Of a stretch of DNA of 42,461 bases, positions 7,192 through 21,555 are shown in pieces. The DNA is from a virus. Position 1 is the stretch's first letter. Each line of letters opens with the position of its first letter. The stretch covers positions 1 to 42,461 of the IMG/VR virus record IMGVR_UViG_3300009601_000008. One strand, given 5' to 3'. The notes under the pieces were generated by a model. It was not told the DNA's origin. It ran no database searches and was given only the letters and a program-made list of their open reading frames with translations. A program made the position numbers and the translations under genes.

Positions 7192-8730
7192 ATGTCTGAC
7201 GAAATCGTTAAGAAATTAAACTTCGGAGACGAAGGTAAAAATAAAGTGTTTGAAGGTGTATCAAAATTAACACGGGCCGTTAGCTCTACATTAGGGGCTA
7301 GCGGTAAATGTGTTATGCTTGAGGACTCATCTGGAAAACCATTAATTACAAAGGATGGGGTAACAGTAGCTAATTCAGTTACATTACTAGACCCTGTTGA
7401 AAATATGGGTGCTACGCTTCTAAAGGAAGCCGCTAGACAAACCGTTAAAGAGGCAGGTGACGGAACAACGACTGCTACGGTACTAGCACACTCTATTTTA
7501 AAAGAGGCATTCGAAACAAAGGACTACAACTCAAGAGAAGTAAGAGATGGAATAAGCTCTGCCGTTGAAAAGGTTGTAGCGTACTTAGAAAGTAAAGCTG
7601 TAGATGTGAGTGGTGATATGCTAAAACAGGTCGCAACAATATCATCTAACAATGACTCAGTTTTAGGGTCAATGATAGCTAAAGCTTTTGAAGACGTTGG
7701 CGAGAATGGTGTAGTAAGTATGGAAATATCTAATGACGAGGAAACATCCGTAGAGGTTGTGGATGGTGCATCGTTAGACAAGGGCTTAAAGAACCATCAC
7801 TTTATTAATAACAAAGAAAAAGGTTCCTGTGAGTTAAGTAACCCACTGGTGTTAATCGTAGAGAGCAAGATACCTAACGTAAGGAAGGTTCAAAGCATTC
7901 TTGAGTACATCATTAAGAACAAAAAAGAATTATTGATTATCGGGGATGCTGATGAGCAACTTGTTACAGCAGTCTCAATGAACGTATCTAAGGGAAACAT
8001 CAAGGCAAATATTATTGACGCACCTGATTACGGTATTAATAAGAAGCAGACGCTACAAGACTTTGCGGTACTAACGGGGGCTACAGTGATAAACGAAGAC
8101 CTTGGTGACGATATGGACTTGATTGATGTAAGTCACTTAGGGACTTGCTTAAAGTCAATAACAACATCTGACGAAACAATCATTCAAGTAGACGGAATGA
8201 GTGATGACGTTAAGGACTTAATTAAGCAGCTTAAAAAGGAGTTAAAGACCACAAAGATTAACGGCAAGAAACACTTACTTGAGAAAAGACTTTCAAGACT
8301 TGGAGGCAAGGTAGGAGTTGTTAAGGTGGGTGCAAACTCGGAGGTTGAATTAAAAGAAAAAGCTGACAGGGTTGAAGATTCAATCTGTGCAACTAAGGCA
8401 GCGATTAAAGAGGGTATACTTCCAGGTGGAGGTATTGCTTTACTTAATGCTAGTGACAATATTAAATCTAAGAATGTAGGAGAGGCAATATTGCTAAAGG
8501 CGATAAAAGCACCATTCCAAACAATAATGGACAATGCTGGGGTTAAAATTGGATTTGTAAACTCAGAAGAGGGTTTAGGAGTCAACGTAATAACAGGAGA
8601 GATTGTTGATATGGTTAAGTCTGGAATAGTTGACCCACTACTTGTTACAAAGAGTGCATTGAAGAATGCGGCATCTGTAGCTAATACGATACTAGCAACC
8701 GATTGTGTAATTAATAACTTAAGAGCATAA
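7192..8730 (+). CDS. groEL: GroEL-type chaperonin, Hsp60
   Basis: The protein has 512 residues (E. coli GroEL has 548) and is complete. It folds proteins in an ATP-driven double-ring cage. ATP-site motifs are intact: ITKDGVTVAN with D55, GDGTTTATVLA with D90, and DRVEDS with D396 at the place of the catalytic Asp398 of E. coli, followed by the EGILPGGG turn. The apical segment has FINNKEKG and LLIIGDADEQ. The SALKNAASVAN helix near the end is conserved. It lacks the C-terminal GGM repeats and ends in NNLRA, which accounts for part of the length difference. The stop overlaps the groES start (TAATG), so the pair is coupled. Substrates are probably capsid or tail proteins. Confidence 0.95.
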   Translation: MSDEIVKKLNFGDEGKNKVFEGVSKLTRAVSSTLGASGKCVMLEDSSGKPLITKDGVTVANSVTLLDPVENMGATLLKEAARQTVKEAGDGTTTATVLAHSILKEAFETKDYNSREVRDGISSAVEKVVAYLESKAVDVSGDMLKQVATISSNNDSVLGSMIAKAFEDVGENGVVSMEISNDEETSVEVVDGASLDKGLKNHHFINNKEKGSCELSNPLVLIVESKIPNVRKVQSILEYIIKNKKELLIIGDADEQLVTAVSMNVSKGNIKANIIDAPDYGINKKQTLQDFAVLTGATVINEDLGDDMDLIDVSHLGTCLKSITTSDETIIQVDGMSDDVKDLIKQLKKELKTTKINGKKHLLEKRLSRLGGKVGVVKVGANSEVELKEKADRVEDSICATKAAIKEGILPGGGIALLNASDNIKSKNVGEAILLKAIKAPFQTIMDNAGVKIGFVNSEEGLGVNVITGEIVDMVKSGIVDPLLVTKSALKNAASVANTILATDCVINNLRA

Positions 8731-8990
8731 TGAAAGCAGTAGGAAAGTATATGTTGATAGAGCCTGTAAAAGAAAACGAAGTATCTACAAAGGGTGGTTT
8801 AATCTTAGGAGAGAGCCACAGAGAGGATATAAGATACAGGGAGGCAAAAGTAAAGACTATAGGGACATTAGTTGAAGGAGTGCAAGATGGAGACACCATT
8901 TACTACGACAGACACTCAGGGTTTGATATGGAGATTGATAAGGTTATTTACAAGGTCATTAAAGAGTTTGACGTAGTAGTTGTTTTGTAA
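8730..8990 (+). CDS. groES: GroES-type co-chaperonin, Hsp10
   Basis: The protein has 86 residues (E. coli GroES has 97). It caps the GroEL ring. The opening AVGKYMLIEPVKENE matches the first strand of the family. STKGGLILGE is the mobile loop, with LIL in the place of the I-V-L triad that grips GroEL. GVQDGDTIYYDRHSG matches the VGD--I--- strand. The gene follows groEL with a one-base overlap, the reverse of the usual bacterial groES-groEL order. Its own stop overlaps the next gene by one base. Confidence 0.88.
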   Translation: MKAVGKYMLIEPVKENEVSTKGGLILGESHREDIRYREAKVKTIGTLVEGVQDGDTIYYDRHSGFDMEIDKVIYKVIKEFDVVVVL

Positions 8991-12934: not shown

Positions 12935-13174
12935 ATGAACAGAATTACAGATGAAGAGCTAGAGCTTATCAGAGAGCAACAAACAAAAATTGCTCAAATT
13001 AAACAAGACATCGGAACACTAGAACTTAGGAAGCACGAGGTTATGGGCGTAATGCTTGATGTAAATCAAGAAGTCGAAGAAACAAAAACCACACTAGAAG
13101 AAAAGTATGGTCGTGTAAACATTAACCTTGATGACGGGACTTATACCGAAGTTGAGGAAGAAGAATCTAAGTAA
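12935..13174 (+). CDS. Short coiled-coil protein
   Basis: The protein has 79 residues. Residues 4-60 form a continuous charged helix (ITDEELELIREQQTKIAQIK) with KYGRVNINLDDGTYTEVEEE as a short beta end. I recall small proteins of this shape just upstream of terminase genes in other marine phages; their function is unknown. It may be a chaperone or structural connector. Its leader is A/T-only (TTTAATTTAATATG) and its stop overlaps the next start by one base. Confidence 0.6.
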   Translation: MNRITDEELELIREQQTKIAQIKQDIGTLELRKHEVMGVMLDVNQEVEETKTTLEEKYGRVNINLDDGTYTEVEEEESK

Positions 13175-13401
13175 TGAGTAGTGTTATAAGAAAAATCAGC
13201 ATAGGGTCTGATTACAAGAATGAAGCAATGCATTATTCTGTTGGGCAACAAGTATATGGTGGTCACGAAATATCTGATATTCTCCTTGACGAGAAAGATA
13301 ACTCTTATAACATTTATATTCAAAAAAATAAGGAGACATTGCCGTGGAAGAAGTTCAACTCTAATATGGCAATATCTGTTGAATATGACTTGCAGTATTA
13401 A
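13174..13401 (+). CDS. Small conserved-looking phage protein
   Basis: The protein has 75 residues, with a beta-rich pattern: VIRKISIGSDYKNEAMHYSV, then GQQVYGGHEISDILLDE, then SYNIYIQK, ending in MAISVEYDLQY. This looks like a compact all-beta fold. I recall similar ORFs near packaging genes of marine phages, without known function. It is linked by TAATG overlaps to both neighbours, so it is translated with the Hsp10-like protein that follows. Confidence 0.6.
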   Translation: MSSVIRKISIGSDYKNEAMHYSVGQQVYGGHEISDILLDEKDNSYNIYIQKNKETLPWKKFNSNMAISVEYDLQY

Positions 13402-14000
13402 TGAAAAGTATTCACGATTTTATCGTAAAACCTATAGAGGGTCGATACAATAATACTGTTAAGGTTGACGAGGTTGACCTTATAGTCAATACAAGAATTG
13501 AGGAATTTAAAAGCGTGAGTAAAGTTGCCGAAGTGGTGGCTTTACCATTAGCTATAAAAACTAACATAAAAGTTGGGGATAAAATCATAGTACACCACAA
13601 CGTATTTAGAAGATTCTATGACATTAGAGGAAACGAAAAGAATAGTAGGAGTTTTATTAAAGAAGATATGTATGCTTGTTCACCTGAGCAGATATACCTG
13701 TATGGAGCAAATAAGACTCATCTTGATTATTGTTTCGTAAAGCCAGTAGAAAACGATAGTATATTTTCTTTAACAAAAGAAAAGCCACTTGTAGGATTTC
13801 TAAAGTATGGAAACAAAGGACTAACTAACTTAGGGATAAACAAAGGAGACCTTGTTTCGTTTAGACCAACATCTGAGTTTGAGTTTGTTATAGATGGAGA
13901 ATTATTATATTGTATGAAATTAATTAATATCGTTGGTAGTTATGAAGGTAAAGGAGATGAAAGAGAGTATAATCCTAGCTGGGCAAAAAGCAGTTGTTGA
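13401..14000 (+). CDS. Putative co-chaperonin with two tandem Hsp10-like domains
   Basis: The protein has 199 residues. Residues 4-101 can be laid on GroES: IHDFIVKPIEG (first strand), VDLIVNTRI (place of the mobile loop, with LIV), VAEVVALP, then KVGDKIIVHHN at 57-67 and EDMYACSPEQIYLY at the end. Residues 109-180 repeat the scheme: CFVKPVEN, VGFLKYGN, INKGDLVSF, IDGELLYCMKLINIV, but with almost no mobile loop. This suggests two fused Hsp10 folds, as in plant Cpn20. It would act with GroEL, or as a specialised cap for a large substrate. The assignment rests on pattern matching by eye. The gene sits just before the packaging genes. Confidence 0.55.
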   Translation: MKSIHDFIVKPIEGRYNNTVKVDEVDLIVNTRIEEFKSVSKVAEVVALPLAIKTNIKVGDKIIVHHNVFRRFYDIRGNEKNSRSFIKEDMYACSPEQIYLYGANKTHLDYCFVKPVENDSIFSLTKEKPLVGFLKYGNKGLTNLGINKGDLVSFRPTSEFEFVIDGELLYCMKLINIVGSYEGKGDEREYNPSWAKSSC

Positions 14001-14223
14001 ACTGATTAAAGTTGCTGAAGAAGCTATTATAGACTCAGAGGACGACTTAACGGCAGACAAGTTAAAGAATGCTGCTGCAACTAAGAAGTTAGCAATATTT
14101 GATGCATTTGAAATACTACAACGCATAGAAAATGAAAAAAATTTGTTAGAAAACAAACCAAAAGAAGAAACTAAAAAGAAAGAGTTTAGAGGGTTTGCTG
14201 AAGGAAGGGCTAATACTAATTAG
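13957..14223 (+). CDS. Candidate small terminase subunit
   Basis: The protein has 88 residues from the ATG at 13957; in-frame starts at 13933 (TTG) and 13942 (ATG) are also possible. It is all helical (MKESIILAGQKAVVELIKVA, then ADKLKNAAATKKLAIFDAF and EILQRIENEKNLLE), with a polar tail. It lies directly upstream of the large terminase, the usual place of the DNA-recognition subunit. No clear helix-turn-helix is seen, so the role is a positional inference. It overlaps the Hsp10-like gene by 44 bases and ends one base before the large-subunit start. Confidence 0.5.
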   Translation: MKESIILAGQKAVVELIKVAEEAIIDSEDDLTADKLKNAAATKKLAIFDAFEILQRIENEKNLLENKPKEETKKKEFRGFAEGRANTN

Positions 14224-14224
14224 T

Positions 14225-16438
14225 ATGTACGAGCAAAGTTTATACAAGGTATTAGACAACTACATAAAACCATCTACTCTAAAGAAAAAAAATAATGATA
14301 AGTCTTGGAAGTACGGGTACGATGAGGATTTTGATATTATTGTAATAAGTAAAACAGGTAAAATAGGAGAGATTTATGAAATACAAAATCTTAAGATAGC
14401 ATTACCTGCTGAGTTTGAAACTCATAACTTTAAAGATAAGAAGTGGTCTCATACAGAATATCCAAAAGAATTAGCTAGAATAAAAACAATCTTTGATTGG
14501 AAGGAATACCCTGAAGATTTTAAAGAACAATGGTACGATTATATTGAGAAAGAATTTGAAAGAAGAGAAAATGGATTTTGGTTTAGTAATAAGGGTAGTT
14601 CTACTTACATTACTGGCTCTCATTATATGTACTTGCAATGGTCAAAAATTGACGTTGGACAACCAGACTTTAGAGAATCAAATAGATTATTCTATATATT
14701 CTGGGAAGCTTGCAAGGCAGACACAAGGTGCTTTGGAATGTGTTACCTTAAAAATAGACGGAGTGGATTCTCCTTTATGTCTTCAGGAGAGACAGTCAAC
14801 CTTGCTACGATATCAGTTGATTCCAGATATGGAATACTTTCAAAGTCAGGGCCTGATGCAAAGAAAATGTTTACCGATAAGGTTGTACCAATCTCAGTCA
14901 ACTATCCGTTCTTCTTTAAGCCCATACAAGATGGTATGGACAGACCAAAGACTGAACTTGCATATAGAGTTCCAGCATCAAAGTTTACAAGAAAGAAACT
15001 TGACTCTAATGAGCAGCAAGAAGATATCAAAGGGTTGGATACTACTATTGATTGGAAGAATACAGGTGACAACTCCTATGATGGAGAAAAACTAAAGCTA
15101 CTTGTACACGATGAATCAGGTAAGTGGGAGAGACCAAGCAACATACTAAACAACTGGAGGGTTACAAAAACCTGCTTAAGACTAGGTAGTAGGATAATAG
15201 GTAAATGTATGATGGGTTCAACATCTAACGCTTTAGATAAGGGAGGAGAAAACTTTAAAAAACTTTACTATGCATCAGACGTTACGAGAAGAAACAGCAA
15301 TGGACAGACTGCTTCAGGACTATATTCTTTGTTCATACCTATGGAATGGAACTACGAGGGATACATTGATTCTTATGGACTACCTGTCTTTGACACTCCA
15401 GAAAAAGCGGTTAAAGACCCTTACGGAAATTTAATTAAACTAGGGGTAATAGAGTACTGGGACAATGAAGTAGAAGGACTAAAAGGAGACCAGGATGGAT
15501 TAAATGAATTTTATAGACAGTTTCCAAGAACAGAGCAACACGCTTTTAGAGATGAAGCTAAAGAATCTATATTTAATCTAGCAAAAATATACCAACAGAT
15601 AGACCACAACGAAGGAATGAAGTCTAGTTCATTAGTAACTAAAGGAAACTTTCAGTGGGAGAATGGAATTAAAGATACAAGGGTAGTTTTTATGCCAAAC
15701 TCAAACGGTAGGTTTCATATAACTTGGATTCCTCCTGTTTCTTTACAAAACAGAATTGTCTCTAAAAGTGGAATAAATTATCCAGGCAATGAGCATTTAG
15801 GTGCTTTTGGATGTGACCCTTACGACATATCAGGAACGGTAGATAAAAGAGGTTCTAATGGTTCTCTTCACGGACTAACTAAGTTTAGTATGGAAGATGC
15901 TCCAAGTAATCACTTATTTTTAGAGTACATTGCAAGGCCTCAGACAGCAGAGATATTTTTTGAGGATGTATTAATGGCTTGCGTATTTTACGGTATGCCA
16001 ATACTAGTAGAGAATAACAAACCAAGACTATTGTATCACTTTAAAAATAGAGGGTATAGAGGATACTCAATGAATAGACCCGATAAAAAGTATACAAGAC
16101 TATCAGTAACAGAGAGAGAGATTGGCGGAATACCTAACTCTAGTGAGGATATAAAACAGGCACACGCTGCTGCAATAGAAACATATATAGAAGAGCTTGT
16201 AGGAATATTAGGTGATGATGAAATGGGGGATGTGTACTTTCAAAGAACTCTAGAAGATTGGGCAAGATTTAATATAAACAATAGGACATCACACGATGCA
16301 TCTATAAGCTCAGGATTAGCCATTATGGCTTGTAACAAAAATCGTTACGCACCGATAAACAGGGTAGCAATAAAAAATATAAATTTAGGGTTTAAGAGAT
16401 ACGACAACTCTGGAAGTTATTCAAAAATAAGAAATTAA
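14225..16438 (+). CDS. terL: Terminase large subunit
   Basis: The protein has 737 residues from the ATG at 14225, chosen because it follows the upstream stop directly; an upstream TTG at 14195 would overlap. It is the ATPase and nuclease that packs DNA. YLKNRRSGFSF at 174-184 is an atypical Walker A. LLVHDE (D296, E297) is Walker B. KCMMGSTSNALDKGG looks like the coupling motif. The nuclease part has GCDPYD (D531), LVENNK (E596) and HDASIS (D691), three acidic residues spaced as in the RNase H-like terminase nuclease. The length and style resemble terminases of crAss-like and Cellulophaga phages. The portal gene follows directly (TAA then ATG). Confidence 0.9.
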   Translation: MYEQSLYKVLDNYIKPSTLKKKNNDKSWKYGYDEDFDIIVISKTGKIGEIYEIQNLKIALPAEFETHNFKDKKWSHTEYPKELARIKTIFDWKEYPEDFKEQWYDYIEKEFERRENGFWFSNKGSSTYITGSHYMYLQWSKIDVGQPDFRESNRLFYIFWEACKADTRCFGMCYLKNRRSGFSFMSSGETVNLATISVDSRYGILSKSGPDAKKMFTDKVVPISVNYPFFFKPIQDGMDRPKTELAYRVPASKFTRKKLDSNEQQEDIKGLDTTIDWKNTGDNSYDGEKLKLLVHDESGKWERPSNILNNWRVTKTCLRLGSRIIGKCMMGSTSNALDKGGENFKKLYYASDVTRRNSNGQTASGLYSLFIPMEWNYEGYIDSYGLPVFDTPEKAVKDPYGNLIKLGVIEYWDNEVEGLKGDQDGLNEFYRQFPRTEQHAFRDEAKESIFNLAKIYQQIDHNEGMKSSSLVTKGNFQWENGIKDTRVVFMPNSNGRFHITWIPPVSLQNRIVSKSGINYPGNEHLGAFGCDPYDISGTVDKRGSNGSLHGLTKFSMEDAPSNHLFLEYIARPQTAEIFFEDVLMACVFYGMPILVENNKPRLLYHFKNRGYRGYSMNRPDKKYTRLSVTEREIGGIPNSSEDIKQAHAAAIETYIEELVGILGDDEMGDVYFQRTLEDWARFNINNRTSHDASISSGLAIMACNKNRYAPINRVAIKNINLGFKRYDNSGSYSKIRN

Positions 16439-20079: not shown

Positions 20080-21555
20080 ATGGGACAATTTATTCCAAGC
20101 TCAAAGGACCCTCTAGGGGACTTTAATTTAAGTCCGATGCCTACTAAAAGTGCATCACCTTTTAATTACATTGATTTTACTGGAGAAACAGGTGGAAACT
20201 TTGCACAACAATACCTACCAGAGATTTACGAAGCTGAAGTAGAGCGATACGGAAACAGAACTCTATCAGGATTTTTAAGAATGGTAGGTGCTGAAATGCC
20301 AATGACTTCTGACCAAGTTGTATGGTCTGAGCAAAACAGATTGCATATTGGGTATAAACTAGCTACTGTTACGGTAGCAACTGGCGTTATTGCTTTACCA
20401 ACGAATGGTGACGATGGAAAGGCTACTAAAAATGCTATCAGAGCAAAAAATACTATTGTATTACAAGCTACTGCTGGTACAGGTGTAGGGACAACTATTA
20501 CTGCTTATGTTAGTGTTGTTGATGGACTTAACGTAACTGTTCTTCCTTATACTGCTGCTAATTTAGCAGGTGCTGGATTTGGAGATGACTCAATATTTAG
20601 CTTATTTGTTTATGGTTCTGAATTTGCTAAAGGAACAAATGGAATGACAGGTTCTTTAGAAGCTTCTTTCACTCAGTTTAGCAACAAGCCAATTATCATT
20701 AAGGACAATTATGAAATTAATGGTTCTGATGCTGCACAAATTGGATGGGTTGAAGTTGCTGCTGAAGACGGAACAAACGGATTCTTATGGTATTTGAAGT
20801 CTGAAGGAGAAACAAGATTACGTTTCCAAGATTACTTAGAAATGGCTATGGTTGAAGGAGAACTTGCTGTTGCTACATCTGCTGTTAAAGCTCAAGTAGG
20901 AAATCAAGATTCTGCTGGTACTGAAGGTCTTTTTGCTGCTATTACTGCAAGAGGTAACGTATACCAAAACTATGCAAGTGGTGCTGGTAAAGATGGTGCT
21001 GGACAAAGAAGTGCTTTAGCTGACTTTGATTTAATTCTTCAAAATCTTGACAAGCAAGGAGCTATTGAAGAGAATATGTTATTCTTAGACAGAGCTACTG
21101 CTTTAGACTTTGATGATATGTTAGCTGCACAAAATTCTTACGGAGCGGGTGGTACATCTTACGGTGTATTTGAAAACTCTGCGGAAATGGCATTGAACTT
21201 AGGATTTGACGGTTTCAGAAGAGGTTCTTATGACTTCTACAAGACTGACTGGAAATACTTAAACGATGCTACGACTCGTGGTTTAGTTGACAATATTGAA
21301 GGTGTATTAGTTCCTGCTGGAACAAGTACAGTGTACGACCAAATGTTAGGTACTAACATCAGACGACCATTCTTACACGTACGTTACAGAGCTTCTGAAG
21401 CTGACGATAGAAGAATGAAGTCTTGGATTACAGGTTCTGTAGGTGGTGCTGCAACTAGTGATGAGGATGTAATGAGAGTTAACTTTTTATCTGAAAGATG
21501 TTTAGTTACTCAAGCTGCTAACAACTTTGTGTTATTCACAAAATCTGCATCATAA
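20080..21555 (+). CDS. Major capsid protein
   Basis: The protein has 491 residues and probably the HK97 fold. The N-terminal signature includes FNYIDFTGETGGNFAQQYLP, EIYEAEVERYGNRTLSGFLR and MVGAEMPMTSDQVVWSEQNR, a pattern I recall in capsid proteins of crAss-like and related Bacteroidetes podoviruses. Residues about 90-180 look like an inserted beta-rich domain (VATVTVATGVIALPTNGDDG). The C-terminal part has LTSDQ-free ordinary capsid strands ending NFVLFTKSAS. The gene has a regular, Gly/Ala-rich composition and is followed by a strong terminator, as expected for the most abundant virion protein. Confidence 0.85.
   Translation: MGQFIPSSKDPLGDFNLSPMPTKSASPFNYIDFTGETGGNFAQQYLPEIYEAEVERYGNRTLSGFLRMVGAEMPMTSDQVVWSEQNRLHIGYKLATVTVATGVIALPTNGDDGKATKNAIRAKNTIVLQATAGTGVGTTITAYVSVVDGLNVTVLPYTAANLAGAGFGDDSIFSLFVYGSEFAKGTNGMTGSLEASFTQFSNKPIIIKDNYEINGSDAAQIGWVEVAAEDGTNGFLWYLKSEGETRLRFQDYLEMAMVEGELAVATSAVKAQVGNQDSAGTEGLFAAITARGNVYQNYASGAGKDGAGQRSALADFDLILQNLDKQGAIEENMLFLDRATALDFDDMLAAQNSYGAGGTSYGVFENSAEMALNLGFDGFRRGSYDFYKTDWKYLNDATTRGLVDNIEGVLVPAGTSTVYDQMLGTNIRRPFLHVRYRASEADDRRMKSWITGSVGGAATSDEDVMRVNFLSERCLVTQAANNFVLFTKSAS

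What the first reader, a model, noticed from the sequence alone, without database searches (positions are those of the whole stretch)
13401..14000. Possible phage co-chaperonin made of two fused Hsp10 domains
The sequence shows two successive stretches that each read like GroES: a K-P strand, a GD strand (KVGDKIIVHHN, then INKGDLVSF) and a closing strand (EDMYACSPEQIYLY, then DGELLYCMKLINIV). Only the first seems to keep a mobile loop. Two-domain Hsp10 proteins are known in plant chloroplasts (Cpn20), and T4 gp31 is a one-domain phage cap. That this genome has a normal GroES at 8730 as well suggests a division of labour, such as a cap with a special cage size for capsid protein. The second part is inference.
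Basis: partly seen in the sequence, partly recalled or inferred. Interest (0 to 1): 0.8.

Follow-up and report, generated by a model that had tools for sequence, protein, structure and literature searches.

The report
Two-domain phage GroES beside terminase gene
This flavobacterial phage gene encodes two GroES (chaperonin-cap) units joined in one protein, like the chloroplast cap protein Cpn20, and it is kept beside the DNA-packaging gene in a large family of marine phages that also carry an ordinary single GroES, so it probably forms part of a special lid for folding virion proteins.

Summary
ORF 13401-14000 (199 aa) consists of two Hsp10 domains. The C half matches phage GroES by profile comparison (prob 96.6, E 5e-10). 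The N half matches more weakly (prob 71.8), but far above 100 column shuffles. A full-length AlphaFold model (pLDDT 84) has as its best PDB matches two chains of the Chlamydomonas Cpn11/20/23 cap (7ekq_R, named Cpn20, and 7ekq_Q). The N half folded alone finds GroES and gp31 first. Only the N domain keeps the ~28-residue mobile loop. The C-domain loop is about 10 residues shorter here but intact in relatives (Pervagoviridae, Pachyviridae). The family has at least 597 members in IMG/VR and none was found in bacterial genomes. It sits just upstream of TerL. It was never seen without a single-domain phage GroES in any record long enough to tell, whereas two near-complete genomes lack a phage GroEL. 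Public annotation already calls it GroES/cpn10 (PHROG 13932), but I found no description of the two-domain build. Best mechanism (inferred): a late co-chaperonin that joins the single GroES in a mixed seven-domain ring, as chloroplast Cpn20/Cpn10 do, and caps phage or host GroEL for virion proteins. New variant of a known kind.

The parts
13401..14000 (+). Two-domain co-chaperonin CDS (199 aa plus stop)
   Evidence: (PHROG 13932 E 1e-21, full length)
13401..13712 (+). N-terminal Hsp10 domain (residues 1-104)
   Evidence: HMM-HMM vs phage GroES prob 71.8 with shuffle control; AF2 of this part alone: top 16 PDB matches are Cpn10/GroES/gp31
13443..13520 (+). N-domain mobile loop (about residues 15-40) with hydrophobic DLIV, aligned over GGLLL of the single GroES
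   Evidence: alignment; low pLDDT at residues 31-40 in the model; constant 28-29 residues in 61 sequences
13713..13943 (+). C-terminal Hsp10 domain (residues 105-181)
   Evidence: HMM-HMM prob 96.6, E 5e-10; Pfam Cpn10 above cutoff in relatives
13743..13796 (+). Shortened C-domain loop (P115-G132, 17 residues; 26-28 in phi18:3, phi38:1, L201, L202)
13944..13997 (+). C-terminal tail (EYNPSWAKSS), conserved at least partly because it overlaps the next gene in another frame
   Evidence: third-position entropy falls from 0.92 to 0.37 in the overlap; tail absent in relatives without the overlap (ctfjg026, phi18:3)
13174..13401 (+). 75-aa companion ORF of unknown function; last base of its stop is the first base of the double's ATG
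   Evidence: homologues just upstream of the double also in elemo, Panino, ctfjg026, phi38:1
13942..14223 (+). Small ORF (about 93 aa) overlapping the double's 3' end, between it and TerL; possible small-terminase-like gene, not shown
14195..16438 (+). Terminase large subunit (ATG probably 14225)
   Evidence: PHROG 6681 E 1e-163; downstream of the double within 311 nt in all 174 ORFs where it could be scored
8730..8990 (+). Single-domain phage GroES (86 aa, loop motif GGLIL)
   Evidence: Pfam Cpn10 41.4 bits; PHROG 3188
7192..8730 (+). Phage GroEL (512 aa)
   Evidence: Pfam Cpn60_TCP1 187.9 bits; PHROG 5725
20080..21555 (+). Virion structural protein, putative major capsid protein (491 aa); a candidate client
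   Evidence: PHROG 13704; in Calle_1 the gene at the same place is annotated major capsid protein

Best explanation
The protein is a tandem (two-domain) Hsp10 co-chaperonin of flavobacterial phages. Shown here: two Hsp10 domains, one mobile loop, conserved place beside TerL, constant company of a single-domain phage GroES. Inferred: it acts as part of the removable lid of a GroEL cage. It joins the single GroES in a mixed ring with seven Hsp10 domains (for example three doubles plus one single, or two doubles plus three singles), docking on phage GroEL, or on host GroEL in phages that lack their own, through the N-domain loops and the loops of the single GroES. Being in the head/packaging gene cluster, it is probably made late and tunes the lid for virion proteins such as the putative major capsid protein.
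For: Two Hsp10 domains. Best whole-length PDB matches are 7ekq_R (TM 0.53; named Cpn20 co-chaperonin subunit) and 7ekq_Q (TM 0.49), while single-domain GroES reaches only about 0.30 by query length; so both domains superpose at least roughly on a Cpn20-type pair. Of 30 distinct phage records with the double, 27 also hold a single GroES, and the three without are fragments of 11.9-17.8 kb. Gundel_1, with homologous TerL and portal, lacks all three genes. Phage GroEL is missing from the complete phi18:3 and from a 72.8-kb relative, so host GroEL must serve there. Position: TerL within 311 nt downstream in all 174 scorable ORFs, whereas the single GroES lies with GroEL (window, elemo, ctfjg026) or near replication genes (phi38:1, phi18:3). 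In phi18:3 several neighbours are annotated from virion MS/MS but gp096 only from similarity, so nothing there suggests it is a virion part. Precedent: Chlamydomonas CPN20/CPN23 combine with CPN10 into functional seven-domain hetero-oligomers (PMC5780408), and at least four of seven functional GroES subunits are reported necessary for binding GroEL (PMC4242682); three doubles plus one single would offer exactly four.
Against: No oligomer could be modelled or tested. N-domain similarity is weak in sequence, and the TM-scores (0.42-0.55 alone) are modest. Co-occurrence with the single may only mean that both are useful, not that they share a ring. Cpn20 alone can work as a homo-oligomer in vitro (PMC4242682), so partnership is not required. 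No expression data were found for the double.
Confidence: 0.5

Rival explanations
1. The double works alone as a homo-oligomeric cap (for example a tetramer with eight domains, one left out of the ring), a second lid used instead of the single GroES for late clients.
For: Cpn20 can act as a tetrameric homo-oligomer in vitro, and P. falciparum Cpn20 replaces GroES in E. coli (PMC4242682, PMC5780408). The double and the single lie in different gene clusters, suggesting different timing. Four doubles would carry four loops, the reported minimum.
Against: Never found without the single in any record long enough to tell. With the C loop lost, a homo-oligomer has no spare loops.
Confidence: 0.25
2. 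Two-tier cap: seven doubles, with N domains forming the GroEL-binding ring and C domains, freed of loops, forming a second ring or collar that changes the dome.
For: Seven N loops would match seven GroEL subunits, and loss of the C loop fits a C domain that no longer docks.
Against: The linker between last N strand and first C strand is only about 8 residues. Whole-chain superposition on 7ekq favours the side-by-side Cpn20 arrangement, though loosely (rmsd 7.2). C loops are intact in phi18:3 and phi38:1, so two docking domains look ancestral.
Confidence: 0.1
3. Not a GroEL cap: a repurposed Hsp10 pair acting in packaging, as a TerL or portal assembly partner, or capping host ClpP as the chloroplast cap does.
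For: Strict linkage to TerL and to a 75-aa companion gene. In 7ekq the Cpn11/20/23 cap sits on ClpP (PMC8889267).
Against: The N mobile loop is kept at constant length with a hydrophobic centre. Genomes with the double always carry further chaperonin-system genes when long enough to tell. No ClpP link was tested.
Confidence: 0.13

Closest known systems
Cellulophaga phage phi18:3 gp096, phi38:1 gp089, Calle_1 gp013, elemo gp30, Panino CDS0088 (PHROG 13932, annotated co-chaperonin GroES / chaperonin cpn10)
   Same: Same family: full-length homologues of 180-200 aa, same place just upstream of (or one gene before) TerL. A chaperonin cpn10 is a core gene of Pervagoviridae (PMC8776804); that it is this gene is inferred.
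   Different: Window protein is only 18-35% identical to them. phi18:3 and phi38:1 keep a long C-domain loop, which the window protein lacks. No source found notes that they are two-domain proteins.
Chloroplast/apicoplast Cpn20 (and Chlamydomonas CPN23; PDB 7ekq chains R, Q)
   Same: Two Hsp10 domains head to tail in one chain; best PDB matches over the whole length; accompanied by a single-domain Cpn10.
   Different: Eukaryotic organelle protein with no significant full-length sequence match (7ekq_R E 0.22, C half only). An inactivating mutation in the Cpn20 N loop and discussion of its C domain as functional (PMC4242682) imply two usable loops, while here the C loop is lost. Probably an independent fusion (inference).
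T4 gp31 / RB49 CocO
   Same: Phage-encoded Hsp10-fold co-chaperonin; gp31 (1g31) is matched by the N domain, TM 0.55. No E. coli-like roof hairpin is visible in the alignment of either domain or of the phage single GroES (that gp31 also lacks it is from general knowledge).
   Different: One domain, works with host GroEL, no second phage GroES (general knowledge); no sequence similarity detected.
Bacterial and phage GroES (Pfam PF00166)
   Same: Fold; C-domain sequence; mobile loop in N domain.
   Different: Two domains per chain, one loop per two domains; N half unrecognisable to Pfam.

Membership tests
Hsp10/GroES co-chaperonin (PF00166) | Profile match above curated cutoff | tested here: inconclusive
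   Window protein 14.5 bits vs 21.1 cutoff; same-family relatives above it, 33.3, 26.8, 26.0 and 24.1 bits; 45 of 61 members match at E up to 1
Hsp10/GroES co-chaperonin (PF00166) | Hsp10 beta-barrel fold in each half | tested here: met
   AF2 plus Foldseek: full length and N half alone
Hsp10/GroES co-chaperonin (PF00166) | Flexible mobile loop with hydrophobic motif that docks on GroEL | tested here: met
   N domain only: DLIV aligned over GGLLL, low pLDDT, constant length. C domain: not met here, present in phi18:3, phi38:1, L201, L202. Docking itself not tested
Hsp10/GroES co-chaperonin (PF00166) | Seven-domain ring that caps GroEL with ATP | not testable with these tools
   No complex modelling or biochemistry available
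Cpn20-type two-domain co-chaperonin | Two Hsp10 domains in tandem in one chain | tested here: met
Cpn20-type two-domain co-chaperonin | A functional mobile loop in both domains | tested here: not met
   C loop 17 residues vs 26-28 in outgroup phages; works-like claim kept, membership not claimed
Cpn20-type two-domain co-chaperonin | Common descent with plastid Cpn20 | tested here: inconclusive
   Sequence match to 7ekq_R only E 0.22 and over the C half only; N domains of all phage doubles form one clade, 100/99, but plastid sequences were not in that tree
PHROG 13932 (phage co-chaperonin GroES) | Full-length profile match | tested here: met
   E 1.3e-21, residues 1-174 on profile 1-192 of 200
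T4 gp31 family | Single-domain cap; sequence similarity to gp31 | tested here: not met
   Two domains; no sequence match in the PDB search, only a fold match to 1g31

The most novel reading that the evidence does not exclude
The phages build an asymmetric mixed GroEL lid with seven Hsp10 domains but fewer than seven docking loops (four with three doubles plus one single). The C-domain loop was lost in lineages that carry their own GroEL, giving a weaker-binding, chemically uneven lid specialised for large virion proteins: a bacterial-virus parallel, evolved separately, to the chloroplast Cpn10/Cpn20 cap.
Probability: 0.22. Interest if true: 0.75.

Novelty: new variant of a known kind. Interest (0 to 1): 0.5.

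Why it matters
Two-domain Hsp10 caps are known oddities of plastids, and how an even-numbered tandem protein fits a seven-fold GroEL ring is a standing puzzle (the symmetry dilemma, PMC5780408). A cultivable phage family with the same build, a single-domain partner, its own GroEL, and natural variants with one or two loops gives a simple bacterial system to test ring make-up, loop number and client choice. It also corrects annotation: hundreds of marine phage genes called GroES, cpn10 or hypothetical are two-domain proteins.

Tried and rejected
Conserved C-terminal tail (EYNPSWA) as a functional motif: rejected as evidence, since it overlaps the start of the next gene in another frame and third codon positions are unusually fixed there. 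A single fused ancestor of TerL N-terminus and the small ORF between the double and TerL: HMM-HMM prob only 4, left open. Origin of the two domains by duplication of the phage single GroES: the domain tree is too weak (5 of 30 inner branches supported); it shows only that all N domains group together, so the fusion is old and probably arose once. Number of C-loop losses: two changes of state on the tree, with very long branches, so one or two. Sequence search of the PDB with the single protein: no relevant match. Papers: none found that describe a two-domain phage co-chaperonin; the held library lacks most subscription papers, including Tsai 2012, and the original phi18:3/phi38:1 genome paper did not turn up in the searches.

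Full report
WHAT WAS CHECKED. It is under protein-coding selection: in 49 close relatives, entropy at codon positions 1/2/3 is 0.31/0.15/0.92.

TWO HSP10 DOMAINS. For the window protein alone, Pfam sees only a sub-threshold Cpn10 match in the C half (14.5 bits, cutoff 21.1), and the PDB sequence search finds nothing relevant. The full-length match to PHROG 13932, itself labelled co-chaperonin GroES, is strong (E 1.3e-21). In relatives the C domain passes the Pfam cutoff: phi18:3 gp096 33.3 bits over profile positions 6-92, phi38:1 and Calle 24.1, and two further contigs 26.0 and 26.8. HMM-HMM comparison of each half with the phage single GroES gives prob 96.6, E 5e-10 for the C half and prob 71.8, E 3.5e-5 for the N half. 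In 100 column shuffles the best scores were 17.2 and 16.5, against 52.0 and 30.7 observed. AlphaFold2 on 61 window and viral-contig sequences gave pLDDT 83.9, pTM 0.77. Its best PDB matches over the whole chain are 7ekq_R and 7ekq_Q (TM 0.53 and 0.49), then single-domain GroES (about 0.3 by query length). 7ekq_R is named Cpn20 co-chaperonin subunit and belongs to the CPN11/20/23 cap on Chlamydomonas ClpP (PMC8889267). The N half folded alone (pLDDT 82.5) finds Cpn10, GroES and gp31 as its first 16 matches, followed by oxidoreductases whose N-terminal domains share the GroES-like fold (the fold relation is general knowledge).

ONE LOOP. In the N domain the loop between R15 and A43 is 28-29 residues in all 61 sequences, with a hydrophobic centre (DLIV) that aligns over GGLLL of the phage single GroES; the model is least certain at residues 31-40. 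In the C domain the stretch P115-G132 is 15-19 residues in the window clade, elemo, Panino and ctfjg026, but 26-28 in phi18:3, phi38:1 and contigs L201 and L202, where motifs such as GSIIVPN and NGLRVI are visible. The simplest reading is that two loops are ancestral and the C loop was lost once or twice. Of the long-loop lineages, phi18:3 and the 72.8-kb record behind L201 carry no phage GroEL, L202 lies in a 17.8-kb fragment that cannot tell, and phi38:1/Calle do carry one; every short-loop record long enough to tell has a phage GroEL. The sample is small, so this is a lead only.

GENOME CONTEXT. TerL starts within 311 nt downstream in all 174 ORFs that could be scored, also in the isolates elemo, Panino, phi38:1, Calle, ctfjg026 and phi18:3. 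A 75-aa ORF of unknown function lies directly upstream, its stop sharing one base with the double's ATG, and its homologues accompany the double in elemo, Panino, ctfjg026, phi38:1 and Calle. The single GroES and GroEL are elsewhere: adjacent to each other in the window, on the opposite strand in elemo, next to DNA polymerase genes in phi38:1, and, single only, next to RNase H and a resolvase gene in phi18:3. Counting each record once, 30 records other than the window hold the double; 27 of them also hold a single GroES, and the other three are fragments of 11.9, 17.0 and 17.8 kb. GroEL is found in 25 of 30; it is missing from those three fragments, from complete phi18:3 and from the 72.8-kb record. 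Gundel_1 has homologous TerL and portal but none of the three genes, so the set is dispensable in the wider group.

MECHANISM. Shown: tandem Hsp10 protein, one loop, co-occurrence, synteny. Inferred: it is a co-chaperonin. A ring of doubles only cannot hold exactly seven domains. In green algae and plants the same problem is solved by mixed rings of Cpn20-type and Cpn10 subunits with seven domains in all (PMC5780408). Mixing an inactive N-loop mutant of Cpn20 with inactive Cpn10(1) restores activity, and at least four of seven functional GroES subunits are reported necessary for GroEL binding (PMC4242682). Three phage doubles plus one single would give seven domains and four loops. Because the double lies in the head and packaging cluster while the single lies with GroEL or early genes, I infer that it is made late and adapts the lid for virion proteins, the 491-aa putative major capsid protein being the natural candidate. 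Where the phage has no GroEL, the host's must be used.

WHAT IT IS NOT. It is not claimed as a member of the plastid Cpn20 family: the C loop is lost, sequence similarity is negligible, and common descent was not shown. It works like Cpn20 in build. Nor is it a gp31: two domains, only a fold match. In phi18:3 several neighbouring genes are annotated from virion mass spectrometry while gp096 is annotated by similarity only, which gives no support to a virion-component reading.

NOVELTY. The gene family is already annotated as GroES or cpn10 in public phage records, a chaperonin cpn10 is listed as a core gene of Pervagoviridae (PMC8776804), and GroEL is reported in 36 of 78 phi38:1-like environmental genomes (PMC5332604). 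The Panino paper reports GroEL and GroES homologues without comment on domains (PMC11590407). I found no paper in the held library that notes two Hsp10 domains in one phage protein. New variant of a known kind.

CAVEATS. No complex could be modelled, coordinates of the model were not available for measuring the angle between domains, and N-domain evidence, although consistent, rests on profile comparison and a predicted fold.

Noticed in passing
window 13174-13401: 75-aa ORF of unknown function, stop overlapping the double's ATG by one base; homologues sit at the same place in elemo, Panino, ctfjg026, phi38:1 and Calle (168 homologous ORFs in the fetched loci). A conserved companion worth naming.
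   Followed up: partly
window 13942-14223: Small ORF between the double and TerL, overlapping the double's last 18 codons in another frame; free-standing also in ctfjg026 and phi18:3, while elemo, Panino and phi38:1 have a TerL with about 150 extra N-terminal residues instead. Possible small terminase; HMM comparison inconclusive.
   Followed up: partly
window 8730-8990 and other phage single GroES: Phage single GroES proteins in this group lack the roof hairpin of E. coli GroES and carry a conserved motif (usually DRHAG or similar) after the GD strand; the lid would have an open top.
   Followed up: no
window 13593-13622 (residues 65-74 of the double): HHNVFRRFYD segment of the N domain is among the most conserved parts of the protein (mean identity 0.76 for residues 65-84); by alignment it lies where GroES lines the cage, so it may contact the client.
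   Followed up: no
L201 (record of 72.8 kb) and phi18:3: Near-complete genomes with single and double GroES but no GroEL; both keep long loops in both domains.
   Followed up: partly
window 7192-8730: Phage GroEL ends in CVINNLRA without the GGM-repeat tail typical of bacterial GroEL.
   Followed up: no
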